A stretch of DNA of 64,000 nucleotides. Source: Asterella californica. Its lineage: Eukaryota > Streptophyta > Marchantiopsida > Marchantiales > Aytoniaceae. The DNA lies in contig JAYKYS010000008.1 of NCBI GenBank assembly GCA_036924285.1, forward strand, positions 20,569,001-20,633,000, in the 5' to 3' direction. Below, one piece after another: positions 949-55,591 of the stretch (its first letter is position 1; the number at the start of each line of letters is the position of its first letter). The notes under the pieces are model-generated. The model did not search any database. It was not told the origin of the DNA and worked only from the letters and a program-made list of their open reading frames with translations. Made by a program: the position numbers and the translations under genes.

Positions 949-3900
949 ATGGCGGTATTTACACTGAAGGAGGAGAGTTTCAAGGTGGCAGTTGTTGGAG
1001 GTGGACTGGCAGGGCTTTCAGCTGCAGAGGTTCTTTCTTCTCATCTTGGCAAAGGAAATGTGGTGGTACTCGAGGCAGCACCCCACTTGGGTGGGCGAAT
1101 TCAAAGCGTCTGCGGTCTTGCTCCGTGGCCTGTGGAGGTTTGTTTCACTGCTATCCTTCCACCAAGAATGACTTCAGCAAGCGGAGTTGACAGTACAAGT
1201 GTAAATGAAAGAAAAGTTAAGCACGTGTTTCAGCGTTTCTGATCGATTACATATCCAGACGGTCAGTCCTTCCGTTCCTTGTTGTTCCTTTTCTTCACAA
1301 ATACAGGCTCAGCTCCTGGGTTTACTTTACGTCGTGGTGAGGCGCAGTCACGGGAGAACTACTGGTTTAGGATAGAGCTTTTGTACCCGAATTTAACTTA
1401 TCATATTTATCTCGTCCCAGGGGCGCGAGTCACCCAATATTATCCCGCCTGCCTGATTGCTCTGCATGCACGCACAGTCACGATTACCCACTTTGAGTCG
1501 CCAGCACTGGCGGTGCACGAAACCAACACGGCAGGCATATGGACCTTCGAAATTACGTTGCTGGGATGTAAATTTATGAAAAGAAGACCACAACGAAGCT
1601 ACGAAGAATTACATATAGTGATAATTCTATTGTGTACTCAAGTTCTGGAGTTTAGTTGAGGCTGACGCGTTGCGTCAATCCATATAGGTTGAGATGGTGC
1701 AGGGTAAAACTTCTTGCTAAAACCCCGATACGGTTTGAATCTGTGTGTCGGTAACTAAAGACTGATCGGGTTTTGACTCAAGGTATGATTTTTTTCTCCC
1801 TCACAGATCGGACCTGAGTTTCTACATGGAACTCAAAATTCCTCGATGAAGAAACTTGTCGACGAGATGGGCTGCGTGCAAAGAGAGCTTAACTTTCATA
1901 TCCTACCCGAAGGGCCGTAGGGTTTAGGGCCAGTTCTGACTCGGTAGTGTCTCATGCGTGTAGGAGGGCATGACATAATGACGTTTGAATCTGTACAGTT
2001 CGGAGAAACAATTTCAATATTTCTGATGTAGTTTATCACAGTCTAGTAGGTCTCTCGTACTGAGCGTATTGAATTTAATTAGGTGAGTTGATTCCGTCTC
2101 CTATCCTGAAAGATAGCTGCAGACGCTTCTGAATCAGGATTTGCTAAACCTGGTTCGTTAGGGCATGAAACCCTTCTCCAGTATCAGACGTCGAATCAGG
2201 TCGCATCAGAAGATCGAATTTGGAAACTGGTAACACTGTCAGGTGTCGTACGCATAGAATCTGAGGTGACAGCAATCCTCGTATCCTTCTAGTAAGTAGC
2301 GTAAATATACTTATTTATGTAGTGGTAAAGAATTACCGTGGAAAACTTGAGTGGAATGTTGCATTTGTCCTTTTCTTTGACTAAACATTGGTTTCTTCCA
2401 CCGGATTACTATTACATCGGACGCGAAGGTCGATTGCTTTCTAGTGCGGATGCGGCTAGGCATGCTGACATCGCGCAGGTGCACGAGTTATTCAAGGCTC
2501 TGCTCGATGCAGAAGAATCGAGTTTGCAGGATATGAGTATGGCAGACTACTTGCAGAAGAAAGGTGTGACCTCGACGGTAATGGGCTTTGCCGAAGGTGA
2601 GGAGAATCTCCTCGTCCAACTGGATTTGAATCTCTCATACAATCGATAGATCTACTATATATCTCTATTATTAAGCAAGCTTTACTACTAAACGAACCTG
2701 GACCTGAATCAACCTTGACACTGTGTGATTGTTTTCTAAATCCTGGAGGAGCATGTTACTTCTCTTCTCGCTTCAACTGATCCCGTTGCCAGTCTGGACT
2801 CATGTACGTGCCGATTGGTGCAGCTATATACGGGAATGACTTCGGCTGCTCACTTGATAAGCTTGGTGTACACGAGTGTATAGAAGAAGCTAATCGGTGG
2901 ATCTACGGCGATACGTACGTAATCGTCGATAGACCGCTCTCATCGGTTGTGAACTACATCGCCCGGGACCTGAATGTATCAATCCTCATCCTCCTGTTTA
3001 TGACTATCGCTTCCAGAATCCAGCACTCCATGAGTCCAGGGCGTAGCTAATGATGCTTTGAGGTCATTCTCATTAGTTATGCTTAGTAGACAAGTACAAC
3101 AGTAAGTTACCGATTCATTATTAATCGCAAGCAACCTCCTTTAGACAGATAGACTGACGCGGTACTAATTGTCCACAAGCGGTTATAATTTTAGTTAGAT
3201 ATCTACTGATGGCTAATATTAAACACTATAATTACGCGTTTGCAGGTACGAGTAAATTGGGCTGTGAAACAAGTTGAACATCTGAAGGATGGTAAAGTGC
3301 GCCTACGCAGCCAGGATTTCCGCGTTGTCAAAGCAGACTACGTGATTCTTAGTGTCCCTGTGGTAAGATCGCTAACGCATCACTTCTGTATATATGTACA
3401 TCGTCCACGATATGGATTCAGCTTTTGTCAGTGGAATTCACCTTTACCTGTTCTATTCTGACTTCAGTTGTAGATCTTGAGCACAAGGTATTTTGATTTC
3501 CAACTTTAAGGCCTTCCTCTAAGGTAGGTAAAGTTTGTTTACTGGTTCTCCTTTCGAGCATGCGCAGACAATTTTACAGCAAGGCTTGATTTCGTTTGTA
3601 CCACCTCTACCGGAATCAAAAATACGAGCAGCTCAAGCTATTGGGATGTCAAACGTCATGAAGGTACGTGCATGGTGGTACAGTCGTGGTTAGTTTTCCA
3701 CAATAACCCAGATTCTTTGACGGTCCGTCGCAAAAGATGATAAGTATTACAGGTGACGTTTCGAATTCATTGATTCCTTCATATAGTCTCTCAGTTCGTG
3801 TTCTAATGAACACTTGTTTCAGGTTGTAATGGCCTTCTCTCATCAGTTTTGGCCCAAAGGCCTTTTCGACGTTGTCTGCTCAGACTGTTTCCTGCCTGAG

Positions 3901-4506
3901 GTGTGGATGACAGAGTATCCCCAACATAATGGCATCGACGAGGGCTGCTATCCAACCGCTAGTCCTCTTGGACAGTACACTGTGGTGGGCTTCATTGCAG
4001 GTGATCGAGCGACTAGAGTGGCTCAAATGCCTGAAGTGGAAATTTTGAGACAATCCTTGGCACAACTGGATAGAATGTTCGGCACAGGTGAAACATCTGA
4101 CTGGAGCTCAGCCTCAACATCGTCAGGTGCTGAGTTGGAACGTACTGATTACGACTCCGCGAACTCAAAAGTATCTGGAACAATTATCCCGAGGAAAGAC
4201 GTGTTTAAGCCCTCCTCCAAAGCTGATAACAGTTCTAAGTCTCGTCCAGCGTCCTATTTCTTCAATGGGGGCATGATCGTCAGTTGGGCAGATCGCAGCT
4301 TCATCCGAGGAGGTTATTCTCACCCATCTGTCAACGCCCGAGGTGCTAGAGCAGAACTAGCTAAACCCGTTGGGAATATCATCTTCTTCGCAGGGGAAGC
4401 CACGCACCCCGGCGTTAATCCTTGTCTGCAAGCTGCCATTGATACAGGAAGACATGCAGCCGATGAGGTAATTGGAGCCTGTGGAAGACGGAGGTGTGCC
4501 TTGTAA
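949..4506 (+). CDS. Flavin-containing amine oxidase, polyamine oxidase-like (7 exons)
   Basis: Exons read as 949-1137, 1807-1897, 2402-2596, 2824-2975, 3246-3362, 3568-3663 and 3823-4506. They join in frame to 507 residues. The family oxidises polyamines or related amines with FAD, giving an aldehyde, an amine and H2O2. Seen in the protein: an N-terminal Rossmann fold (VVGGGLAGL, residues 15-23) followed by an acidic end of strand two (E42) and GGRI (48-51); GPEFLHG (65-71); a lysine at 280 in MSNVMK, where plant polyamine oxidases carry their conserved active-site lysine; and the C-terminal FAD motif FAGEATHPG (about 469-477). The start is the first ATG of the Rossmann exon; the open frame also extends a little upstream without an ATG. 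Residues 368-425 are a Ser/Lys-rich insertion within the C-terminal half. No signal peptide or C-terminal SKL-type peroxisomal tripeptide is seen (it ends in CAL), so a cytosolic location is inferred. All introns are GT-AG except intron 2. The substrate cannot be told from sequence; a histone-demethylase LSD1-type role is unlikely because no SWIRM domain is present. Confidence 0.88.
1898..2401 (+). other. Putative U12-type AT-AC intron (intron 2 of amine oxidase gene)
   Basis: No GT-AG pair gives a natural join between the coding blocks on either side. The coding sequence before it ends in CTTAACTTTC, followed by ATATCCTAC, close to the U12 donor consensus ATATCCTTT. The block after it begins CGGATTACTATTAC, preceded by ...TTCTTCCAC, an AC end. 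Joining C to CG gives Pro and continues the family-like run NFPDYYYIG in frame. About 21 nt upstream of the AC sits TTTCTTTGACT, one base from a U12 branch-site motif such as TTTCCTTGACT. An alternative GT-AG join (donor at 1915, acceptor at 2352) keeps frame too but inserts about 15 unrelated residues. Confidence 0.65.
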
Positions 4507-7500
4507 CGTATGGATCCTGCCGCAATGTAGGCAGGCTCCTCTGGATTATTCCCATTGATACCATGTTTAGTTTCACCTTGTCTTGAAGGTGTGCTGCTCA
4601 ATCGGTCAAACGGTGCGATACAGATAGAGTTGCAGCTTCTAGCAAGAGCGAATGTAGTACAGTAGTAAGAGGAATACATAGCACGAAAAAATGAGAAAAA
4701 CAACCACCGTGGCATACTGTAACAGAGAGAAGAGCAAAGAACGAGACAAAATGACAGTCTCGTTAAAGACTTGATGTGGTTTTCTCAGCTATTTCTTCTA
4801 GTAGTGTATGAACTAATTCCTTTTCTCTTCTGAAGTAATCGTAACAACTCTCTTCTGTAGTTCATTTGTTAGTTATCTCTATAATTCAAAACTAGTGCAT
4901 ATCTGAACTCAAGATGCATTTCGGATGAAGATATCCACATATTCCAGTTGTTAAAGCCAAAAAATCTAAAGAAACATCTCGATCAGCAAAGGTTCAAGCT
5001 TTCATCAGTAGCGATGGATGCAGTATGTGGGATAGAAGAAGATGCTCGTTAGATCATAAGCGATATAAGTAAAAGATAGAAACTCGTTTCACAGCAAAAA
5101 GGAAAAATATATCTGTTTCTTCTTCATGTGTACTGTGATCGTTCTCATAACTGAGCAGATTGTATCTTGGACTGTATCATGTTTTCTTCTCATTTCACCA
5201 CCTTATGCACAACTTAACAAGTGTATTCGAATTGCGGCACCAGTGGACTGTTAACCAGTAAAACATGGGATATCAGTTATTACGATTGTGGGAAACCAAG
5301 TGGGATGTGCATCATTATATAAGGGATGAAGCGCGTGCGAAGTGTGTGAAGTATCTTTTGGTGTTTGAGTTGTCAAAGTGTTCAGAAAGAAGTGCGGGAA
5401 TGCGCAGACGATATATGGAGAAAAACGTAAGCGCGCTTGCACCGAAAGCTGACTTCGCTCAGGACGAAGCATTTTGTTTATCGATTATGGATAGATGTCA
5501 TACGAATGGTAAGTTCGCACCCTAGTGAAGTGGACACTAGTGTACCACGATTGGAAGAAAGCGAGTATGTTACTCCTTTGGAAATAACCCTTGAGGACAT
5601 CCTGAGAATGTTGGATGTCCTGAAGTTCGCAGTGAGCGATGTTGTGTCGTGGACTCGCTTCTACTTGAAGTCTAAATTCAGTTCTATATTTTTGTTCTCA
5701 AGAAATTCATGAAGAGAAATAATGATTTTTTATCTACTTATAGACATACATTTTCACTGCACTAAGTGATAGAGCTAGTTGTAAGGTTTCCAATTGCACT
5801 TCATTTGTTTCATTTGGGTGCTTAATGATGAAGTTATGAGATTCGAAAGAAAAAAAAACAAGATAAGCCTTTGCTTGTATATGTGAATGGTATCTATAGT
5901 TCCTAGTGTTACACTAAAGGCACAAGGGCTTGCTTGGTCATTTTCTAGAGATTTCATGTACTTTGAAAACTGACGTAAGACGTGCTTAAGACGTCAATTT
6001 GTACTTGCAACTTGTTGATGGATATTTCGGGAGATTAGGAGGTCTAATGCATGCGCACAAGGTGTCACTAGATTCTGTGCATGTGACACATAGAATAATA
6101 TGGTTTGTGAAGAGACGGATCATGTTGTATGTTATGGAGGAAATTGAGACGTAGAGAGAAAAGATTGGAGTCTTTCAGTTGCATGTGAAACAGAGTTGGA
6201 TCGTTCGAGCTATTATGGAGCTCAAACTTGTTGTCTTTTGATCCACCGAGATGAGAACCTTGAGTTCTTCAAGAAAGTGAAGACGTTACAAAGTTTCATC
6301 AGACGATTTGAAAAATGTAAGAAAGATTATATCGTAAGGAGAAGCTTTTAATCGGTTTCTATTTACTTACGACTTGAGGTTGGGTTGTTCTTTGTCATCG
6401 GTGGAGCAAGCTCTTCATTCTTGGTGCCTATGCTATTAGAGAGTCTTCATGTATGCACAAGAGGAGACCGCAAATAGATTGGATTGTTGTGTTGACCGTT
6501 GTCGTATAACATGTTATATGTCTAAGAATTCACTAGGTATATATTTGTGCAGAGATATGTGGCTTTGAACAAGTTGGTTCTAAAGCTCGATCTTTCAACC
6601 CAAATGTTTTTTTATCTACTCTTCTAGCACAAATGACCTTGTACTCTCTCGATTCAATGTCAAAGCTTACTATGATCCAAAAGATATGTATAAGTTGTAG
6701 AAACGGCGTTACAAATAGATCCTTTTGTGTTCTATCTGAAATACTCAGCTTTGTATCATTTAACTGAAAGTAACTCTACATCACTAGAATCACGACTTGA
6801 TAAATTTCCTTGATGCTAGTTACCCGTCAATCCAATCATCACAACTCTATCTTTTACAACCAAAAGATGATCTAGTGTTGCTCAACCAAACTTCGTATCC
6901 ATATCTGAATCAGTTCCTATATTTTTTTGGCTTGTCAACCGATCACTGAAGTTGAAGGGTGTAGACGTGACATGATGGATATTACAAACTGTGTCAATGA
7001 TGAGAGATTAGCTATTTTTCAGATTTTGGATCGAATTTCTGAGTGGAATTTTCTAAGCTTGAAGGATGTCTTATCAGTAAGATATCTAGAGAGTTATCTT
7101 GAATGGTCTAATAGGTTTTTCAGGGTCTTGGATCAAGTCTACATGGGTCTATAAAGCTGTTAAGTTAGCACAGATTAGGGTTTGATCTATATCCGAGAGA
7201 TGGATTGAGATTTCGATATGAATTTCTTTTAAGATAAGAGTGAAAGGTCCAATAAAATTTCCTGTGAAGTTTGATCACCATTGTTGATCGATCTAGGAGA
7301 ATTGAGGTCTCAAAGTTCAAAGAAGCTTTTGTTATTAACGGATCAGATTTTCAATATATCTATCGTTACTTTTTGATTCTTTCCGAACTATTAGGGAGGA
7401 GTTTGCTGCTGAAATTGCTATGCCAGCATATATTGTGAAGGTGTGATTTCAACTCTATGTGACGAAGGAGCAAGGAGTCTTGATGAATCAAAAATAGTTG

Positions 7501-45070: not shown

Positions 45071-47060
45071 CTTTGCTAACCTCTCCAATCTCCTCGTCTT
45101 CGAGATTCCAAACAAAACTTCAACTTTACTGTCTCACAAATCCCCACTTCCCTCTATCTCTATCACGCCAGACGCAAAGAGCCGTAGGAGGATGTAGTGG
45201 GACGGTCTACTGACCAGCAAACGCACTCTCGCAATCCGACAATTGTCGAGAAAAAGCGTCTGAAAAGTACAGTAGATCTCGCAATTTCTCCGTTGGACCG
45301 TTCTCTCAAGTCTGGTGTTCGGAAGGGGAAGAAAAGATTGGAATCAGACACTGAATGGACAAGTGAATGAGTGAGAGAATGATCGCAAATAAAGCTTGTC
45401 TGCTTGCTGGCATTAGATGCGTCGTGATCGCACGCGCTGACGCCAAAGGCTCAGCTCCGCCCGGTCTGCCCTGCCCACCCGTTGCTGCTCCTCCCTCCTC
45501 CTCCTTCATCTCCAGCCTGCGCCCGCGTCCGCTGCCCTTTTCGCTCCTCCACAAGTTCAGGACGGACTTCGACTTCGTAGTTTTCTACGAAGTCCAAGTT
45601 ACAGTAACACCATTTCTATCGCACGGATCTAAACAACAGGTTCGCAAGCTGTGCTCCTTGTCCGAACTCCGGACTCCGGACTCCACTGATTCACGGCAGA
45701 CGGTACACTTCCATTGGTTCCACTGACTACCACGGTCCTACCAAGGGCCTAACTTCCTCTCAAGGGACTTCAATCAGACTAACTACGGTAGTCGGGGAAT
45801 CGCAGGCACGGATGAGCCTGTTGTTGAGAAAGAGTTCCGAACCTCAGGGAAAGAACTCTTTCCCACAAGGCTGGGTGACTGAGAACATGACCGTTCGATG
45901 TATTTCGAGCGTGTGAGAGCAACTTTGAGTCGTCGATTGCGAACATCCTTGACAATATGTAAAGTCCGGAACTTGAGTTAGAGGCGAGGCGTGTCAATGC
46001 AGGACTTCTTTCGACCCGTTTCGTTCATCGCTTATTTCGAAAAATCATCTTGGAAGGTGGAGCTATAACAGTCTATCACATTACTGTATGCTGGAATAAA
46101 GTGCACCACGGTAGGTAGTTGTTGAAGGAGAAAGAGAAAAAAAGGCGGAGCGGCGAATGCAGTTCACGATGCTAGAACTCTAAAACAAAATCTAAATGGC
46201 AAGACGACTTCACCTTCGCTCTCCTTTTCACTTTCCAATGCGTAACCAATCGGTAGTTTGTCCTTAGTAACTGAAAGATCGCAGTTGCGTTCAAGAGAGA
46301 GCTTTAGACCAGCTGCTTGGAATTAATATCACATTGATTCACAGAAATTGAAGAGAATCTAGATTGTGTAACTGAGTACAACACATAATGTCGCACTGTT
46401 CCAATTTTACATATCATATTCATAATATTTTTCTTTTTTCCATCTCTTTGTAATCAGTTTTGATTATATTCTCTTAACACATGGTACTATTTTGGCATTT
46501 AGGGTGGAGCGGTTGGCCTAAGGTGTGTAGAATTGTCGGGCAAACACGGCCACAAAGGACTCGACTCTCAGACCTTTTGATTCTCGCACATTAAGATATG
46601 TGACGGTGATGTAAATATCAGTTAAGTTATTGCTATTAACAATGATCATATTGTGGATATGAAGAGGACAGTTAGTGAGTATTTGACAACAGTTAACACC
46701 GATCAATTAATATTGCTGGAGTTTCTGGACTGAAGATGACTGCTAGCATAAGTTATAATCTAAAATTGAACATTTTCAGTGAACACTAAGACACTCTGCA
46801 AACTAGAGTATAATGCAAAATCTGTCCATCATCGCTTGCCATAGTCTGATAAATAACAATATCCTTCCATTGCAATTGGAGGAGTTACGTGAGTTTGAGG
46901 GATTCGGAAATTCCCCTTCTACTCAATACAGAAACTGAATATACATGCTGATGGAGTCTTGCGGCGGCCCGAGGAAGCAGACAACCGTAATTATCGGTCG
47001 AAAATACCATACAGTGACTGATTCCGGTGGTGGTATGCAGCATTTCGGTATTTGATGCGA
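45071..47060. other. Upstream region of the aminotransferase gene and adjacent intergenic DNA
   Basis: This is the promoter side of the - strand gene. A perfect short hairpin lies at 45571-45594 (GACTTCGTAG, TTTT, CTACGAAGTC). A + strand frame at 45367-45726 overlaps the expected promoter and is Pro/Ser-rich without motifs; I do not support it as coding. 46100-47040 shows nothing recognised. Confidence 0.35.
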
Positions 47061-48041
47061 AGAGGCCTTTTGGGAAAATATTTGAGATGAAGGGGCCGTG
47101 TAGAGACAGTGTGCGGGAAATATTTAGGTTAAGGGGCTCTGGGGGAAAATATTTAGGTTGCAGGGTTGACGGGAGGTTTTAGGTTTACGGGGCGGAAGAC
47201 AGATTTTTGAATGAGGCGCGGTTCGTTGCCGCTCGTCTTCTCGTGCTTGTTGTGTCTTGCTTGTTGGCTGCTCGCGTTGCTGCTGCGTTTTTGCTATTGT
47301 TCTCGTCTCGTGCGGCGGCAAGGCTCTTCGTCGTTGTGGCAGGTGCTGCTGATCTTGGTCGTCCGGTTTTGCTCTCGTTCGATGCGGTGTTGCGAGTGCG
47401 GTTTTGACGAGCGATTGGAGATTCGCTTGTGGCAAGCTTGTGGTGGTTCTCATTGCGTTGCTACGGCGGTGTTCTGTTGGTCCCGCGGCGATTTTGTGGT
47501 ACCGAATTGGTGCCGCGGTGACGTTCGCTGGTTGGGCTGGGCGGGAAGTCGCTCGCTCCGATTGGACACCGCTGAAGCACTGCGGTGTTGCGGTCTGCAC
47601 AGGTTGCAATTCGGGTGTTCGTTGTGGGCTGTCTATGGCTGTGGACAGACGACGGCACATTTCATTGGGTTTGCCTTTGCGTAGTGCTGTCCGGTGGAAA
47701 TGTGCATGTATGCTTCGGGCAGTCGGCTGTGGGCTGCCGGCTTTGCTGCTTGTCATTGTCGGTCTCGCTCATGCAAATGTGCGCTATGGACACGCAGTCT
47801 ATGGGCTGTCCAGTCCACTCGAAATGTGCAGGTATGCTTCGGGCAGTGCGGTGTGGTCTGCCGCCTTTGCTGTTTGTCCTTCTCGCTGTCGCTGATGCAG
47901 GATGGCATACATTTTGTTGAACCTGGTCTCGATTCTTGATGATGCTTCCGAGTTTTTCCAGGTGAACGTATACATGGAGTCAAGTATGGCTGATACTCTA
48001 TTTGCAACGTTTGTGTTGTTTCTGTGTTTTCTGTTGGCTCG
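47061..48041. repeat. GC-rich leader of the Rep element with short and 124-bp repeats
   Basis: GGGAAAATATTT-type units recur at 47072, 47115 and 47143. Further on, GAAATGTGCATGTATGCTTC at 47697 is repeated at 47821 (GAAATGTGCAGGTATGCTTC) with the following GGGCAGT and GCC(G)CTTTGCTG phrases, a 124-bp duplication. Long open frames on both strands here (for example 47124-47756 -, 47404-47895 +) come from GC-rich repetitive composition. The region may be the 5' non-coding part of the element whose genes start at 48042. Confidence 0.45.
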
Positions 48042-48686
48042 ATGATGAGAACGTTAGAAACGATGGGTAGTGGTACTTCTGAAGGAACTACTGTTGTTGC
48101 TTCTAGTCAAGAAACAGCTCCTTCCAGTCCTCAGCCTGGAGTTATTAGTCCTGCGACTTCTGTGACTGATTCTTCCTTCTTCGAGGAAGACTTTCTTTAC
48201 ATTTCTTTGGGTTTTCCACCTATTTTTCCTACCTTAGACGAGGTCTGCCATGAAGGGTTTAATGATCACGGCTTGGAAACGCATCGTTTTTATATCTACT
48301 TAGATCTGGAATTTTGTGAGTATGTGCCGCAGTTTCTGTTTGATACAGATTTTGTAAAAGTGGCTCGGGTGTTTGCAGCTCTGTCCGGACCTTTTATGTA
48401 CTTGGGAACGACTGACGATACCTATTGGCTGGTACTAGAGGATCGGGACAAACGGATGTTTACCTACCCACGTTTATTCCTCGATTCTTGTTCTGTACAG
48501 TTATTCAAGCCTACAGTACGAGCGATATACATGATACGTAGTTTGCCTTGCATCTGTCTTGGTCTTGATCCGTCGAGATTTAGGTACGTTTGTCCTCATT
48601 TTCCTGAACCATCTTGCCTCAATGTCTCTTCGAAAGGAAGCGAGAGCCAAGAGGACGAATCCGTCCAATCCCGAAAAGAGTCTTGA
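48042..48686 (+). CDS. Companion ORF of the HUH-Rep element (unknown protein, 214 aa)
   Basis: The frame opens with two consecutive ATGs (48042, 48045) and runs 214 codons. Residues 1-45 are Ser/Thr/Pro-rich and probably disordered. About 75 onward is a hydrophobic/aromatic globular part, with RFYIYLDLEFCEYVPQFL and WLVLEDRDKRMFTYPR. No known fold or motif is recognised. The same protein is encoded, with stops, upstream of the second Rep copy (54836-55591 on the - strand): RSYVYIDFHFC and LWLILKDSISTFFSYSKF align with it. Its 3' end overlaps the Rep start by 65 nt in another frame. It may be a separate accessory protein, or an N-terminal domain joined to Rep by +1 frameshifting or splicing. 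A GTACGT donor-like site at 48584 is not conserved in the other copy. Confidence 0.6.
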   Translation: MMRTLETMGSGTSEGTTVVASSQETAPSSPQPGVISPATSVTDSSFFEEDFLYISLGFPPIFPTLDEVCHEGFNDHGLETHRFYIYLDLEFCEYVPQFLFDTDFVKVARVFAALSGPFMYLGTTDDTYWLVLEDRDKRMFTYPRLFLDSCSVQLFKPTVRAIYMIRSLPCICLGLDPSRFRYVCPHFPEPSCLNVSSKGSESQEDESVQSRKES

Positions 48687-49350
48687 AGTTTCCATCACTG
48701 TATGTAAGACAGGAGGAGATTTGGACTTAGAGCTCTTTTCCTTGTTAGGAGTTTTTCTGGAGAGGCAGTGCATTTCGGGTTTGTTCTCTGTAGAGCGTGG
48801 GGGTGGTTTGCTTCATTTGCACTTCCAAGGAGTCGTTTGTATCCATGCGAAGAACTGCCCGCAGGTGAAGAGGATGGTTACGACTGCTTTGGGTTGGCAG
48901 CGGGAGAAACTTTTAGGGGGTGAGATTTGTGTCAAGTCTCTGACGAACCGTGGCTTGCACACCTACGTCGGGATGCTGGATTATTGTATGAAGGATCAGA
49001 AGGAAGAGTATCACCATGTCACCATGAAAAACGTTTCTGAGAGCATGCTAACTGATGGCAGCGATATGTACGTTCTTCTAGGTGCTACGGACACTAAAAA
49101 TCGGGTTGAGCTCACTTGTGCAAATATACTTGCTCGGGCATTGCAGTTTAATAAGTACAGGAATTCTCATCCCTTGTCTACTACTATCTGTAGTTGTTTG
49201 AGAACAATGCTAACCTCTGGGAAGTACAGTGCTTCTCCGCGATGGATTATTCAGGGTGGAATGCAGGAAAGGAGGTTAGACTCTTTGTGGAAGTCTTTTT
49301 TGCATCCTGCTGAGGTAACTGCAGAGGATGTCCAAAATATCTTTTTCTAG
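48622..49350 (+). CDS. HUH endonuclease (Rep-like replication initiator) of a mobile element
   Basis: The first ATG of this frame inside the conserved overlap is at 48622; the product is 242 residues to TAG at 49348. Rep-type HUH enzymes nick and join single-stranded DNA through a tyrosine. Seen: a motif-I-like strand LEVSITV (21-27); the HUH motif HLHFQG (65-70), with H65/H67; GLHTYVGMLDYCMKD (111-125), with Y121 and K124 in the Y-x-x-K arrangement; and a C-terminal helical part with NILARALQFNKYR. No Walker A (GxxxxGKT) or helicase domain follows. That argues against a virus-type Rep and against Helitron RepHel, and fits helicase-less HUH transposons such as Replitrons (inference). A second, broken copy is at 54040-54918. 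The frame continues for 83 codons after the TAG, and the other copy has a sense codon there, so this protein may be C-terminally truncated. Confidence 0.72.
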   Translation: MSLRKEARAKRTNPSNPEKSLEVSITVCKTGGDLDLELFSLLGVFLERQCISGLFSVERGGGLLHLHFQGVVCIHAKNCPQVKRMVTTALGWQREKLLGGEICVKSLTNRGLHTYVGMLDYCMKDQKEEYHHVTMKNVSESMLTDGSDMYVLLGATDTKNRVELTCANILARALQFNKYRNSHPLSTTICSCLRTMLTSGKYSASPRWIIQGGMQERRLDSLWKSFLHPAEVTAEDVQNIFF

Positions 49351-49599
49351 CAGGACAACATGTGCTGTGGGCAGTGCAAGAGGCGGTATATCGAGACAGA
49401 TCCCGTGATGTGGAGTGAGGTACCTGTAGCACCTGCCGAGGCGGACCCAGTGCCGCAGATGGTGTTTCCTGCTGCTCCAAGACCTCCTGTGTTGAATGAC
49501 AATGAGCAGGCATCGGAATACATTCCACTCTTGGATGCATTCGTAAGACGTATGGACGCTGGAAGAGCTTTTGAGCACCACGAGACGATTTCTGTTTGA
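49351..49599 (+). other. In-frame continuation of Rep beyond the TAG
   Basis: The reading frame of Rep stays open from 49351 to a TGA-type stop at 49597-49599. It gives about 82 further residues starting QDNMCCGQCKRRY, with a cysteine cluster followed by a Pro/Ala-rich linker and an acidic helix. In the - copy the equivalent position reads FFSKRED with a sense codon. The ancestral Rep was therefore probably longer, and the TAG is either a disabling change or is read through. Confidence 0.5.
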
Positions 49600-50847
49600 T
49601 TGATAGAGTATAGAGTAAATAGTGAATGATTTGCAGACTATGCAGTAAATAGTGAAGTAGAATCGATTCTCTAGTGAGGTATGTGTTTTGTTATGCGCAG
49701 TATACTACGAACTGTGACTGAAGTGTGTGGCCGCTCGCACTACCTTCGTACGGTTCTGTACAAGGACCATATACACATAATTTTCCAGTGGTAATAAAAC
49801 TCATGGTCCACCGTGGTCTTTTTTCTCAAGACGAACTTGCAGCTGTGTGTAGGGGAAGAGAAAAAGGCCGTGAAATTGCTTACTTTCGTGAATGGAGGCA
49901 GCAGCCATTTAATGAAACTTGTACGGCTCGTTTAATAGCAGGAACGAGTCTAAAAGAATTATAGCAGGAGGGGAGTCGAAAATAATTATAGGCCAGAAGT
50001 GAACCCGCGGAAGGGAGACCAGAGGAAGCGTTGAGGAGAAATGAATAGCGTTAAATAGTATTGCAAAACCAAAGGAAGGGCTACCGATACATAAAGCCGT
50101 CTCATATATTATTGTCCACTGACTGCATGTGTAAGATGTAGTCATGAATGCTCTGAATACGAACTGAATCGTATTCGTATTCACCTCCTCCAGAAAATGG
50201 CTTGATCATACCCCTCTTAACGTTTAGTTTCTTGATCATACCCCCAACCTCCCATCGTCTGCCCTGCCGGTATCGCGTGTCATGTAGATCATGTCATGAT
50301 GCCACTGTACACAGTTTGACGTGGAGTGCATCATGACAATGTACACAGTCTGACTTGGGACATGGAAACGCACAGTCTTACGTGTGGCGTGTTTCATTGC
50401 CAAGGAGCCGGAAAGAACCGGACAGTGACACAATGACATGGAGATGCATAGCAGACAGTCTGACGCTCACGTGCAATACCACGCAGTGCTCTAAAAAGCA
50501 AGATGTATCCATGTGAAACAGATCATGACGCGTTTATTTGAACATTTGAAATAGATCATAAGAGGTTCCTGCACATTAGCGATGTGTGTCAAAACAACAT
50601 TGTGAACTAAATCCGAGACTAAATTCGAGAAAGTAGTGATCCGAGCGAAACAGAAAGTGATCAAAAGCACGAATTCTGACATAATGATATGACCACCGAA
50701 CGAAACAATGTTATGAACCTTGATGTAGAGAGCGAGGATGATTGCTTAGACAGATTACATTTCAGAGATGAAAAATAGAGGTTTACTAGGGATGTACGCT
50801 CCGAGGATCTTGCAAAAGAGAGCGTGCTAAAAAGATGACGACAAGAA
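49600..50847. other. Region 3' of the Rep element; orphan frame and short repeats
   Basis: GTAAATAGTGAA occurs twice at 49614-49655, followed by a 12-bp palindrome AGAATCGATTCT at 49659. The frame 49725-49964 (+), without an ATG at its start, reads protein-like (DELAAVCRGREKGREIAYF) and could be a detached C-terminal piece, but I cannot assign it. Near 50307-50460 GTACACAGTCTGAC-like phrases repeat, the first two 34 bp apart. Confidence 0.35.
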
Positions 50848-52882
50848 ATGACCGATGTGAGAGTCGTGAGTCGGTTACTCCAAGACAAGACTTTGGAGTC
50901 GCTCAGGGCCGCTGGAAGCCTCGTGTGTCTCGGATCAGAATTCAAATCCTTTAAGGAGTTTGATTTTTTCGTTGATTGTTGGTCTTTCTTGAATAGCCGA
51001 GCGAGTCGTAAATTGAAGAACTTTCTAAACTATAGAGTTAGAGTGTGCATGTATGGAACGAAGACTCGTTGTAGAAAATTATTCAAACAACAAACGGAAA
51101 CATCGAGTAGTGCTGAAGCGAGTCACAGAAATAGTCAGCATCGCAGCTTTCAAGAAAAATACACAAAGACATCAAGCGTTAGTAAGGCAACTTGTAGCTA
51201 GTCGATCCGAATTGGCACAAATCCAATCAAGAAAAGAATCAACTAATGACCATTGTGGTGAACGACGTCAATATCAATCAGCCGAGAGATCAACCTTTTA
51301 TGAGACTACTACACGTGATAGTCAGCTCGAGCATCCATACAAGTGATAAGTTAGAGCACAGAAGGGCAAGTTCACAAGACAAATTGCTATTACTATTTGT
51401 GATTTAGAGCACAGTTGTCCTAGTCATATTGGATATTGACGTGGTCCCGCATCGAACTCGAAAGTCCTAGCTGCAGTTCCGTGTAACAAGGTCGCCATTG
51501 ATCCGAACACCTCCATCCAAAATCTGATGGAAGATCTTCGAACTACATTCAATAAGTGGGCTCCTTACTACCAGGTCTGGGGGAGTCGAGAGCACTCTCG
51601 AGACTGGTTGGAGGATAATCAAGCAACATCCTTCTACTACATTCTTTCTGTAGACGTATACTTGAAGTAGATCCGATGGCAGTTGTGGATTGGAGTACAT
51701 GAGAATGTAACACAAGAATATTCAGTATATATTACGTGTGTCATAGTGTCACTCGCGATGCATTTTCTTTGGGTCAAAAGGTGATATGTTTGGACGCTTG
51801 TCATAGCAAGTCGAGAAAGTTTCCATGTCAAATATTTTTAGCTTCCATGCTAGATGGTGCAAATGAAGCAATCATTTTAGGCTTCGCGGTTGCACCGCAA
51901 GAAGACACTGCAAACTGGACATGGTTCTGTCAACATCTCCATAACTCGATACACGGTATTGTTTGTCCTCATACTATAATTATCAGTGATAGACAAAAGA
52001 GTCTCGAGCGAGCTGTTTCGGATGTATTCTCTGAAGTTGTCCACGAGCATTGTGGACAACACATCCAAATGAGAGATATAGTCGGTTAGCATTTCCTCTA
52101 TCTCGCTATGAGAAAGGCACTTCCAACTTGACAAAGAGTATGAATAATGCTTTGAGACAGATCCGATGGAATGCTCCATTGAAGATCTTGTTGGATTTAT
52201 GGTATTATATTATGCAGCAGTTCACTAAGCGCAAGATACAGCTTCAGCAAGAAACAGGTGTATTGACACATTTTGCTCAACTACGGCTTATGGAGACGAG
52301 CACGATGCAGAAGGTTTTATGTGTCGGATTTCTTCTCCATTTGAGACTACAGTCCGCGGCCATGCTAATGGAGTAACACATGTGATGAAACTAGCACAAG
52401 GTGATGCAGGAAAATGGACATGTATGGAACTCCAGGAGATGAGATGGCCATGTGGTCATGTTATTGTCTTCGACAATGAGACTGATGGGAATCCAACAAC
52501 GAGATTTGATAATGTTTGGCATAGCTCTTCGTTATTTTCAATCTACGGACATAGTGCTTTGCCAACCATTTTCACTGTTGACCTTCAATCAGTGTACTGT
52601 TGTTGACCTCCTCATGTGACAAGAAGAAGAGGAAGACACAAAGTGGTCAGGATTGACAACAATACACAATTCTCTCACTCTGCATCATATGGCAATGAGG
52701 AGGATCTATCTCAGACGAGTAGTACACATGTCCCTTCGCTAATTGAAGAGAGTCACATGACTGAACGCATGAACGAACCCAAAATGATTGATACTGAATA
52801 TGCTGTTAACGATGAGCAGATATCACATTTTTTTGAAAACAGAATGTGCCATCGAAGACGAAGACGAGTACTGGAGGTATGA
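50848..52882 (+). pseudogene. Mutator-like element (MULE) transposase, frameshifted
   Basis: Pieces lie in order in different frames. 50848-51201 may be the N-terminus (FVDCWSFLNSRASRKLKN), which is uncertain. 51500-51667 gives DPNTSIQNLMEDLRTTFNKW before a TAG. 51736-52089 contains the first part of the DDE domain (VICLDACHSKSRKFPCQIF, TANWTWFCQHL, IISDRQKSLERAVSDVF, then HEHCGQHI). 52050-52376 has TSNLTKSMNNALRQIRWNAP, the NxxxN-type segment of MULE transposases. 52319-52606 has the SWIM zinc finger (KWTCMELQEMRWPCGHVIVF). After one stop an AT-hook-like RRRGRHK follows and charged sequence runs to 52882. At least three frame changes and several stops show that it is dead. No terminal inverted repeats were found by eye. 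Confidence 0.82.
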
Positions 52883-53391
52883 TCAAGTCATTTTCTGCAC
52901 CTCTTCTCAACTCGGTTGAAAAAATATTATCTCGTGTTCTGTATTCTTTTTTCTGCTCGAATACGATCGCAGTTTGCTTTATCAGAGTGAGATGCGATGA
53001 GACAACATGCATCTGACGACGAACATTAAGAACGTTTTTTTTGTTTTCAGCAGTCCCGCGAAAGAAAACTATTTGGATTTGTCGATTTTTCCTCTTCCTC
53101 TAGATGCCACAGTTCGTCCGTTTCCGGACATATATTGCTGGACCAGCAAGAATTGGTAAGCAGCAATCATTACCAATTCAGTACAATGTACAAGTCGGTC
53201 ATTTTTTTAAATTCATTTATTTATTCCATACCAAGACAATGCGAGCGCTTTGCTCGCATATAAATACATGTGTCCAAGGACGAAAAATAGTGCTTTACTA
53301 TAGTGTAAACAAAGCGAAATGAAGGAGGAAAACAGTCAAGTAAGTACTGTAAGCTACATGAAGTCCAAAAAAATCCTCCATTAACATAAGA
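52883..53391. other. Spacer between MULE remnant and tandem repeats
   Basis: No gene is recognised. It probably includes the 3' end of the MULE. Nothing further is supported. Confidence 0.35.
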
Positions 53392-53935
53392 AGAAGAACA
53401 GAGTTCACCGTCTTCCGTCGTACTACTGAACGAGAAAGAGGAAAACTAGCGACTGTACAGTGCAAAAAATGCTATGCTACATAATGGAGCATATGTATAT
53501 AAGAGAAGCCTTTCCACCGAATATTACCTGAAAAATGAGTGACTTTACACAGTTGAGCCTACATGGACTGCAGTTTGTACACAGTTCAGTCTACATCAAG
53601 CCAGAAGAACAGTGGGCGCCTTCCGTCGTAGTACGGAACGAGGAAAATGAGCGACTGTATATAAGAGAAACCCTTCCAGTGATATTGCCTGCTGCTCGTA
53701 CACCGCTGTCTTCTCCGCAATGCCCTTCCACCAATATAGAAGAACAGTGGCCGTCTCCGACACACTGCTGAATGAGAAAAATGAGCGATTGTACATAAGA
53801 GAAGTCATTCCACTAAATATATTACATGCTGCTCATACACCGCTGTCTGGTCTACAATGCCCTTTCATGAATATTGCCTGCTGCTCCTATACCGCTGTCT
53901 GGTCTGCACGCAAAAGGGAAGTCATGTATGAAAGA
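53392..53935. repeat. Tandem repeat 3' of the second Rep copy, period about 136 bp
   Basis: AGAAGAACAG starts units at 53392, 53603 and 53739. The last two are spaced 136 bp, and the first is longer. Shared phrases are CTTCCGTCGTA, GAGCGACTGTATATAAGAGA, TTGCCTGCTGCTC and ACACCGCTGTCT. The final partial unit ends near 53935. The array lies immediately downstream of the - strand Rep copy and may be part of the element's terminal region. Confidence 0.6.
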
Positions 53936-54039
53936 AAAAGCTTTTAACGTGCAAGTACAAAAAAGCTGTCAACTTACCTTCCGTTGCTCGTTGTGCCGTC
54001 CTGTCTCGAAGTAAAGCGCTATAAAGAGAAATGTAGTCA

Positions 54040-54918
54040 GGAAAAGCTTGCTTCGACTTCGAATAGTGGACAAGCATCCATTGTCGAGAAAGGCAGATCG
54101 AGTGACCGCGCCTCTTCTTCAAGAGTTAGAGTGGTGAAGTAGCGCCACCGATCCTCGCGCTTGGAGAAAAATATAGTATCAATATCTATCAGGATCACAG
54201 TCTACGGATGTACAATGGATTTTTAGAGTGTCTCACTCCTCGTCCGTTGTATATCGTTACCCATTAGTCATTTACAGGATGGAGCATACTTGCCAGATTG
54301 AACCATCGAGCGAAGAGAAGCGTAGAAGGTACTGCCGAAAAGATGCCAGCACTTATACTTGTTGAACTGCAAAGCGCGTTATAATATATTGTTCGAGTTT
54401 AGTTCCATCCTGTTTTTTGTGTCTGTGGCACCCAAAAGTGTAAAGAGCTCATCTCCATCTGCAAGCATAGCATCACTAATATTTTTCATACAACATTGGT
54501 GATGTACCTCAGATTTATCTTTCATATTGTAGTCAATCATACCCACAAAAGTATGAAGGCCTTTGTTATTGAGCTTCTTTACGCACACTTCACCTCCCAG
54601 TGATCTAGTACTCCCTTTCCAACCCAAGACGATTAGTAGTCTGTTCTTAACAGCAATCAGACTGGTGGCCTGCAAACATAAAACACCTTGAACGTGGAGA
54701 TGTAATAATGCTCCTCCTCTTTCCATCGAGATGAGCTCACTATCACACTCTTGTTGTAGAAAAACAAACAACGATCCCCAACAAGAGAGGTCCAGATCCC
54801 CACTAGTTTGACCAATTGTCACGAAGACTTCAAGACTATTTAGAGAGGTCTTTTTTCTGGAGCGAGGAACAGGTGGGTTGTTCGCACTGTTCGCACGAAC
54901 GGCTTGTCGCATTTGCAT
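54040..54918 (-). pseudogene. Second HUH-Rep copy, interrupted by stops
   Basis: ATG at 54918 opens 179 codons to TAA at 54379. HLHVQG and DYNMKD (the HUH and Y-x-x-K motifs) are intact, as are GLHTFVGMIDY and TDTKNRMEL. The same frame then continues past the stop with RALQFNKYK and SGKYAPS, matching the + copy, before further stops at 54268 and 54223. It reaches FFSKRED where the + copy has its TAG. Similarity fades by about 54040. Divergence from the + copy is large, so the two are old or separate insertions, not a recent duplication. Confidence 0.7.
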
Positions 54919-55591
54919 CAGATGGAAAGAGGAAATGTTTACAACCTATCTTATAAACTCTACTGTTCATAGCTTTGCATACATAAGTTAAAGATTTCTG
55001 TACGTACACAAAAGAAACAACTGCTTTGAGAAGGTTCTTGTCTTCCTCGTGTCACAGAAATTTAGAATAAGAGAAGAAAGTGGATATGCTATCCTTCAGG
55101 ATGAGCCACAACTGTCTGGATTTGATATACAAAAAAGGTCTGATTATGCAATAGAAGCATTCGGTAGCCCCCGAGAAAGCATAAGACAGTTTTACATAAT
55201 CCAAACCAGGAAGAAGGAATTCAGGTGGTTTTAAACAGAAATGAAAGTCGATATAGACATAGCTTCTGGTCAGGTGTAGTTGAGTTTCAGAGAAGGAAAG
55301 GTAGCCGGAAGAGAGCAAGGGATAGGAATGAAGAGTCATTGGAGGAGCAAATTGAAGCACTTGGCATTTGTAGCCTTCAATTCTGTGGAGGCAAACTGGT
55401 TGAATAGATTATAACGACGAAAGTACTACCGACGGAGAGACTGGGACAGAGACATGAAGGGGATGGGATGGAGGGCTCGAAGGTATAAGCAAAGGACTAT
55501 GTGGAGGAGAATATGACAGTTGAAGATTGACATATTTATCATCATCGAACACTGTAACAATATTGTCATCATCATGTGAATCACTAGACAT
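54836..55591 (-). pseudogene. Second copy of the companion ORF, with two in-frame stops
   Basis: A frame starting at ATG 55591 (MSSDSHDDDN, acidic, then Ser/Pro-rich) meets TAA at 55409 and TGA at 55052. It stays in the same phase to TAG at 54836, a total of 252 codon positions. Between and after the stops it aligns with the + strand companion protein (RSYVYIDFHFC, VKLSYAFSG, LWLILKDS, then GCKHFLFPSDA against VCPHFPEPSCL). It overlaps the Rep start by 83 nt in the same relative +1 frame as the + copy. Upstream, 55592-56026 is open on this strand and GC-rich but not recognised. Confidence 0.6.

What the first reader, a model, noticed from the sequence alone, without database searches (positions are those of the whole stretch)
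48042..55591. Two convergent copies of a helicase-less HUH-Rep element in a plant genome
Seen: two Rep-like genes facing each other (48622+ and 54918-), each with an HLHxQG motif and a Y-x-M-K motif and with no Walker/helicase sequence afterwards. Each is preceded by a homologous companion ORF. The family shape (HUH, single Tyr, no helicase) is unlike plant CRESS-virus Reps and Helitrons and resembles what has been called Replitrons. The companion protein is unknown to me, and the pairing across two diverged copies says it belongs to the element.
Basis: partly seen in the sequence, partly recalled or inferred. Interest (0 to 1): 0.88.

Follow-up and report, generated by a model that had tools for sequence, protein, structure and literature searches.

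The report
Two-gene rolling-circle transposon in a plant
The window holds two worn copies of Replitrons, a recently named kind of plant jumping gene, and in this genome every copy examined carries at least part of a second, unrecognised protein gene next to the gene for the DNA-cutting enzyme.

Summary
Both Rep genes match Pfam Replitron_HUH (40.2 and 42.2 bits, cut-off 28.5), with HLHxQG, one conserved Tyr and no helicase found. They belong to two diverged Replitron families, not two copies of one. Copy 1 is a 3.2-kb element (46938-50153) whose Rep has an in-frame TAG at codon 243. Copy 2 is decayed. A MULE lies between them.

The companion is the substantive result. It was found, whole or in part, beside Rep in 40 of 40 loci picked for Rep, and at least part of Rep followed it in 14 of 14 picked for the companion. 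It is under purifying selection between subfamilies (dN/dS 0.15-0.23 outside the overlap), diverges with Rep (Mantel r 0.90), and usually meets Rep in a +1 frame overlap. No significant match in Pfam, PHROGs, PDB or two searches of 5.8 billion proteins.

Copy-1 family ends share AATATGCA; part of the copies have a paired hairpin before the 3' end. Target duplications were not shown. So this is a member of a known transposon group with a two-gene layout. Whether that layout is already published could not be checked: the founding paper is not held.

The parts
46938..50153 (+). Replitron copy 1, whole element (about 3.2 kb)
   Evidence: Left edge shared within 2 bases by copies L009-L014 and L016; right edge from the terminal motif and hairpin of relatives. 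The exact right end is approximate because the terminal motif is eroded here.
46938..46954 (+). Left terminus AATATACATGCTGATGG (family motif AATATNCATGC[CT]GATGG)
   Evidence: AATATGCATGCTGATGG has 54 exact hits in the genome, 0 for the reversed control.
47675..47899 (+). 101-nt direct duplication (79% identical, spacing 124) in the 5' non-coding region
48042..48686 (+). Companion ORF of copy 1 (214 aa plus stop)
   Evidence: dN/dS below 1 against relatives
48622..48686 (+). Overlap of companion end and Rep start; Rep lies in the +1 frame relative to the companion
48622..49350 (+). Rep (Y1-HUH endonuclease) ORF of copy 1, 242 aa up to an in-frame TAG; the same frame stays open to 49599
   Evidence: Pfam PF21859 40.2 bits, cut-off 28.5; L009, L011, L013 and L014 open to about 325 aa
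48814..48822 (+). HUH motif His-Leu-His (residues 65-67)
48982..48984 (+). Conserved single Tyr (residue 121)
   Evidence: invariant; the neighbouring Tyr115 is Phe in copy 2, P0002, L032 and L037
50121..50143 (+). Degenerate 3' hairpin of copy 1
   Evidence: weak on its own (fold z -1.19, 24 of 200 shuffles fold as well); perfect in 8 related copies
50144..50153 (+). Remnant of the 3' terminal motif GTGAATATGCAGGTGCTC
   Evidence: Read by eye against relatives; the intact motif has 245 exact hits, 0 for the reversed control
46923..46937 (+). Left flank that resembles the right flank (possible old target duplication, imperfect; limits by eye)
   Evidence: 1 of 56 mismatched flank pairs scores as high
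50154..50166 (+). Right flank that resembles the left flank (limits by eye)
54836..55591 (-). Companion of copy 2, with 2 in-frame stops
54166..54918 (-). Rep of copy 2, with 4 in-frame stops
50191..52897 (+). MULE DNA transposon between the two Replitrons (not part of either), 22-bp terminal inverted repeats with one mismatch, 9-bp target duplication CACCTC[C/T]TC
   Evidence: Pfam MULE E 8.5e-14 on ORF 51736-52086; ends

Best explanation
The two loci are remnants of autonomous Replitrons from two families that are abundant in this plant genome. Judged by copy 1 and four paired end motifs, an element of the copy-1 type is about 3.1-3.5 kb (a fifth pair spans 5.2 kb) and carries two genes on one strand. 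ORF1 (the companion, roughly 200-240 aa) has a variable N-terminus and a conserved core. ORF2 is the Y1-HUH Rep (about 325 aa) and usually starts inside the end of ORF1, in the +1 frame.

Proposed mechanism. Rep uses its HUH motif and single Tyr to cut one strand at the short repeat AATATGCA found at the left end and just inside the right end. It stays joined to the DNA, a copy is peeled off by host replication, and the 3' motif GTGAATATGCAGGTGCTC, with a hairpin before it in part of the copies, marks where the copy ends before it is joined to a new site. ORF1 acts in the same process, most likely by holding Rep or single-stranded DNA or by bringing in the helicase that Rep lacks.

Shown here: both genes, their pairing and selection, the end motifs, the hairpin in part of the copies, and high copy number. 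Inferred: cutting, copying, the role of the hairpin and the role of ORF1. The two window copies look inactive.
For: Pfam PF21859 above cut-off in both copies. Genome search with PF21859: 150 scored of 1557 candidates, all 150 over the cut-off, 0 of 14 control genomes. Companion search: 150 scored of 2096 candidates. Companion, whole or in pieces, with Rep in 20 of 20 fetched copies of family 1 and in 10 of 10 plus 10 of 10 loci taken from the PF21859 list (the model was built from family 1 and copy 2 only). At least part of Rep downstream in 14 of 14 loci taken from the companion list. 56 of 56 including the two window copies. Between two subfamilies dN/dS is 0.17-0.26 for the companion and 0.05-0.11 for Rep; companion outside the overlap 0.15-0.23, 10 pairs. 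Mantel r 0.896, 0 of 999 permutations reach it, 45 of 56 loci used. Rep start ATG at the aligned start in 18 of 19 rows printed (the L034 row was anchored downstream of its ATG, which is visible in the row). Ends. Hairpin: 72 of 72 cells paired, 3 of 9 pairs changed on both sides, covariation score 0.389 against 0.095 +/- 0.041 in 500 shuffles, none as high.
Against: Target duplications: 2 of 7 own end pairs match by 2 or more bases against 13 of 42 crossed pairs, and only 2 of 8 copies stand out. The hairpin is not universal: of 15 sampled right ends 5 have a stem of 11 or more with a GNRA loop, 3 a weaker hairpin, 7 none (L065 and L068 come from near-identical copies). In one search two of five measures do not exceed the shuffles (pairs with a change on both sides 328 of 500; further pair types 127 of 500), and the 8 rows fall into two main stem types, so independent changes are few. 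Copy 2 has no recognisable ends. The Replitron C-terminal domain is below its cut-off in copy 1 (14 of 27 bits). Within subfamilies companion dN/dS is 0.25-0.74 over 11 pairs, median 0.38 outside the overlap, as for decaying copies or weaker constraint. The permutation test ignores relatedness of copies. The role of the companion has no direct evidence: its fold prediction failed (pLDDT 32). The +1 relation is not universal: 19 of 20 in family 1 (L020 lacks the junction) but 14 of 20 in L029-L048 by the companion's C-terminal match and the frame of the Rep start, the others being L029, L031, L032, L039, L044 and L048. Unscored Replitron candidates could lack the companion.
Confidence: 0.85

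Rival explanations
1. Companion and Rep are one protein in the living element, joined by a +1 ribosomal frameshift or by removal of a short intron, so the companion is the N-terminal part of the transposase.
For: The ORFs overlap in a +1 relation in most loci. In L032 and L037 a single open frame (508 and 490 aa from the first Met) runs from the companion through Rep. Between the companion start and the Rep ATG there are 4-9 ATGs, the companion's own start included, in the 5 copies counted, which makes simple leaky scanning less likely.
Against: The Rep start codon and MSLRREARA or a close variant are conserved. In L023 and L027 a stop in the Rep frame sits directly before that ATG. The companion stop is at different distances in different lineages, before the Rep ATG in L035. 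In L037 the companion's own C-terminal part is in another frame, so that fusion looks like an indel. Splice sites were not tested.
Confidence: 0.2
2. The companion is a captured passenger with its own function (for example against host silencing) and is not part of the cutting and copying machinery.
For: No detectable similarity to any replication protein. Its dN/dS is higher than that of Rep.
Against: Constant pairing, fixed place and overlap with Rep, shared divergence. This does not separate a helper from a counter-defence protein.
Confidence: 0.25
3. The loci are endogenous CRESS-virus fragments that lost the helicase.
Against: Profile match to Replitron_HUH and to no viral Rep family at E<=1. 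No match in phage or plasmid records at E<=1 and none confirmed in viral contigs. Many copies with common ends (54 and 245 exact motif hits) are transposon-like.
Confidence: 0.02

Closest known systems
Replitrons (Craig 2023, PNAS; paper not held, known here through two passages of PMC10741241, the Pfam entries, and recall)
   Same: HUH domain with a single Tyr, no helicase, Pfam PF21859, short direct repeats at or near the ends, window copy within 0.9-4 kb, high copy number in a plant genome
   Different: A second ORF of unknown family was present in every locus examined here, usually overlapping Rep; a GNRA-loop hairpin stands before the 3' motif in part of the copies. I do not know whether either is described in the founding paper. 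One end pair spans 5.2 kb.
Helitrons, including plant Helitrons with an RPA-like second gene (PMC4683698, abstract read)
   Same: HUH rolling-circle transposon with a second protein gene; a hairpin near the 3' end (PMC10741241 passage: 16-20 bp hairpins 10-12 nt from the 3' end)
   Different: No helicase found, one conserved Tyr, no match to Helitron or RPA families in Pfam at E<=1, different ends
CRESS-DNA virus Reps (circovirus)
   Same: HUH motif order; best structural matches of a low-confidence model
   Different: No superfamily-3 helicase, no profile match, multi-copy element with its own end motifs

Membership tests
Replitron | HUH endonuclease domain of the Replitron type (Pfam PF21859) | tested here: met
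   40.2 and 42.2 bits, cut-off 28.5
Replitron | Single catalytic Tyr (Y1) | tested here: met
   Y121 invariant, neighbouring Tyr not; catalysis itself not tested
Replitron | No fused helicase | tested here: met
   No helicase family in Pfam at E<=1, no Walker A motif in the scanned frames
Replitron | Replitron C-terminal domain (Pfam PF21860) | tested here: inconclusive
   14 bits in copy 1 against cut-off 27; not listed for copy 2; relative P0002 25.2 bits
Replitron | Short direct repeats (5-11 bp) at or near the ends | tested here: met
   AATATGCA in the left and right motifs of the copy-1 family. In the window copy the left reads AATATACA and the right is eroded; no ends found in copy 2
Replitron | Length 0.9-4 kb | tested here: met
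   3216 bp in the window; 3098, 3171, 3455 and 3513 bp for four paired end motifs, one further pair 5182 bp, two short ones 483 and 656 bp (positions; pairs picked by eye from lists of which one search shows only the first 100 places)
Replitron | Target duplication of 2-8 bp | tested here: inconclusive
   no more than chance overall
Replitron | Host is a green alga or non-seed land plant | tested here: inconclusive
   One LEAFY-family (PF01698) gene, E 2.6e-35, 0 of 14 control genomes, shows a plant (that the family is confined to plants is recalled); non-seed status not tested
Replitron | Copy-and-paste movement | not testable with these tools
   Needs insertion data from living plants
Helitron | HUH with two Tyr plus helicase (RepHel) | tested here: not met
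CRESS-virus Rep | Viral Rep profile and superfamily-3 helicase | tested here: not met
   No such Pfam family at E<=1 and no Walker A motif
IS200/IS605 or IS91 transposase | Y1_Tnp or Y2_Tnp profile | tested here: not met
   Pfam-A scan at E<=1 lists only Replitron families

The most novel reading that the evidence does not exclude
Land-plant Replitrons are two-component systems. A previously unrecognised protein family, translated from an ORF that overlaps the Rep start, is an obligate partner of a helicase-less Y1-HUH endonuclease, supplying what Rep lacks (single-strand handling, helicase recruitment or end recognition).
Probability: 0.4. Interest if true: 0.65.

Novelty: new variant of a known kind. 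Interest (0 to 1): 0.52.

Why it matters
Replitrons were named only in 2023, and how a HUH protein without a helicase copies and pastes DNA in a eukaryote is, to my knowledge, open. A second gene found beside Rep in every locus examined, defined end motifs and a hairpin at part of the 3' ends give concrete parts to test. If the second protein is needed for transposition, a one-gene description of the group would be incomplete for this plant. The end motifs also allow autonomous and non-autonomous copies to be annotated.

Tried and rejected
Element ends guessed from the window alone (46997-49984, repeat GTCGAAAATA; 5 of 200 controls reached the score) were wrong: alignment of copies moved them to 46938 and about 50153. 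Companion as a degenerate HUH copy of Rep: profile comparison negative twice (E 0.48 and 0.65). Companion homologues: none at E<=1 in two searches of 5.8 billion proteins (these reach only relatives sharing short words), none in PDB, PHROGs best E 0.15, Pfam none and two chance matches at E 0.11 and 0.18, each in 1 of 15 members; none confirmed in viral contigs. Rep: 2 database relatives at E<=0.01; none in PDB by sequence, phages, plasmids, or confirmed in viral or prokaryote contigs. Foldseek against PDB gave no match at E<=0.001, and unrelated folds stood above HUH proteins. Replitron ends for copy 2: none found. Target duplications: inconclusive. A general hairpin pattern search did not complete. 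The founding Replitron paper is not held. The word Replitron occurs in 3 held papers, of which I read the matching passages only; those passages mention no second ORF. Other literature searches were read as listings, plus the abstract of PMC4683698.

Rows dropped or limits: genome counts are lower bounds (only the best candidates are scored). L001-L008 repeat places also held as the window or L009-L015 and were not counted. The DNA query that picked L009-L028 includes the last 87 bases of the companion. The first ten PF21859 loci (L029-L038) were picked partly for long open frames; the next ten (L039-L048) came from lower in the list. Several loci hold the companion or Rep only in pieces (for example L020, L024, L041, L054, L055). 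11 of 56 loci were left out of the Mantel test for short segments. The 7 companions and 8 Reps were chosen because they are open or nearly so. The hairpin rows were chosen because a hairpin had been found in them (8 of the 21 loci scanned), which favours pairing.
Full report

State of the two copies. Copy 1 Rep is open for 242 codons, then a TAG, then 82 more open codons; L009, L011, L013 and L014 are open to about 325 aa, and L023 also has a stop at that codon. Copy 2 has 2 stops in the companion and 4 in Rep. The copies are 48% (Rep) and 28% (companion) identical. Third codon positions match at 31% and 27%, against 60/69% and 37/58% at positions one and two, over 242 and 136 codons, so both reading frames were kept as protein over a long divergence (synonymous distance was too large to estimate). 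A MULE with 22-bp inverted repeats and a 9-bp target duplication sits between them.

Genome. After many unanswered requests the window's genome could be searched: 516.7 Mb, 773 contigs. It is a plant: one LEAFY-family gene, none in 14 control genomes. PF21859 gave 1557 candidates, 150 scored, all 150 over the cut-off. The companion gave 2096 candidates, 150 scored. A DNA query from copy 2 spanning companion and Rep gave 449 candidates, 40 scored: the window itself and 39 others at 73-85% identity, most of them nearly end to end.

The companion. Twenty fetched copies of the copy-1 family all contain it, some in pieces. A model built from the copy-1 family and copy 2 alone found it upstream of Rep in 10 of 10 more distant loci, and a model from 15 sequences found it in 10 of 10 further loci, one of them only as a C-terminal piece. 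Of 14 loci chosen for the companion, 14 have at least part of Rep downstream. Between two subfamilies dN/dS is 0.17-0.26 for the companion and 0.05-0.11 for Rep, and 0.15-0.23 for the companion outside the overlap. Within subfamilies the companion values are higher, 0.25-0.74, median 0.38 outside the overlap. In the 7 copies chosen as open, the other five frames hold 4-15 stops each. Identity of companion pairs follows identity of Rep pairs, r 0.896, 0 of 999 permutations; the copies are related, so this overstates independence. The conserved core includes R-x-Y-x-Y, P-x-FL and a C-x-C ... C-x-H stretch. No database gave a significant relative.

The junction. In most loci the Rep start codon lies inside the companion ORF, in the +1 frame relative to it: 19 of 20 family copies (L020 lacks the junction) and 14 of 20 of L029-L048 (my count from the frames; in L035 the companion stops before the Rep ATG although the frame relation is the same). 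MSLRREARA or a close variant starts Rep; in L023 and L027 a stop in the Rep frame stands directly before the ATG. In two loci (L032, L037) a single frame runs through both. How the second ORF is translated is unknown; reinitiation, a separate transcript, frameshifting and splicing were not tested.

The ends. Full-length alignment of copies gives a left end AATATNCATGC[CT]GATGG and a right end GTGAATATGCAGGTGCTC, with AATATGCA shared as a direct repeat. Exact motifs AATATGCATGCTGATGG and GTGAATATGCAGGTGCTC have 54 and 245 hits in the genome, 0 for the reversed controls. In 8 of the 21 loci scanned a hairpin with an ATC-GNRA-GAT core was found in the 3' region. On these 8 rows all 72 cells pair and three of nine pairs are changed on both sides; three of five measures exceed all 500 shuffles, two do not (328 and 127 of 500 reach them). 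In 15 loci sampled by the right motif the strong hairpin is present in 5, a weaker one in 3, none in 7. Two short copies (656 and 483 bp) carry both end motifs and look non-autonomous (positions). Target duplications were not demonstrated. L010 and L013 differ from the right motif after GAATAT.

Reading. The elements meet the tested protein, end and size criteria for Replitrons as given in PMC10741241 (passages); the C-terminal domain and target duplication are inconclusive. [quoted passage not shown] What goes beyond the description available to me is the second gene and the 3' hairpin. From recall, the founding abstract speaks of a HUH domain and a second domain in the same protein and of short direct repeats; I do not recall a second ORF, but I could not check. 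The analogy with plant Helitrons that carry an RPA-like second gene (PMC4683698, abstract) makes a single-strand-handling role a natural guess for the companion, with a Rep partner or a counter-defence role as alternatives.

Noticed in passing
50191-52897: Decayed MULE transposon with terminal inverted repeats CAGAAAATG[G/A]CTTGATCATACC and a 9-bp target duplication CACCTC[C/T]TC (50182-50190 and 52898-52906), starting 38 bp beyond the right end of Replitron copy 1.
   Followed up: yes
L063 (C21:12348906-12349561) and L064 (C52:8206257-8206739): Short elements of 656 and 483 bp with both Replitron end motifs and the 3' hairpin; they look like non-autonomous derivatives.
   Followed up: partly
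L014, oriented positions about 1530-1559 and 4690-4740: This copy appears to be inserted at the 3' end of another Replitron: its left flank is a Replitron-type hairpin and terminus, and the right flank repeats it.
   Followed up: partly
53671-53908: Three copies of a 49-nt repeat (69 and 82% identical to the first) downstream of Rep copy 2.
   Followed up: no
47124-47756, minus strand: A 210-codon open frame opposite the 5' non-coding region of copy 1; not tested for conservation.
   Followed up: no
3787-4506: Fragment of a flavin amine oxidase gene (Pfam Amino_oxidase, E 2.5e-16).
   Followed up: no
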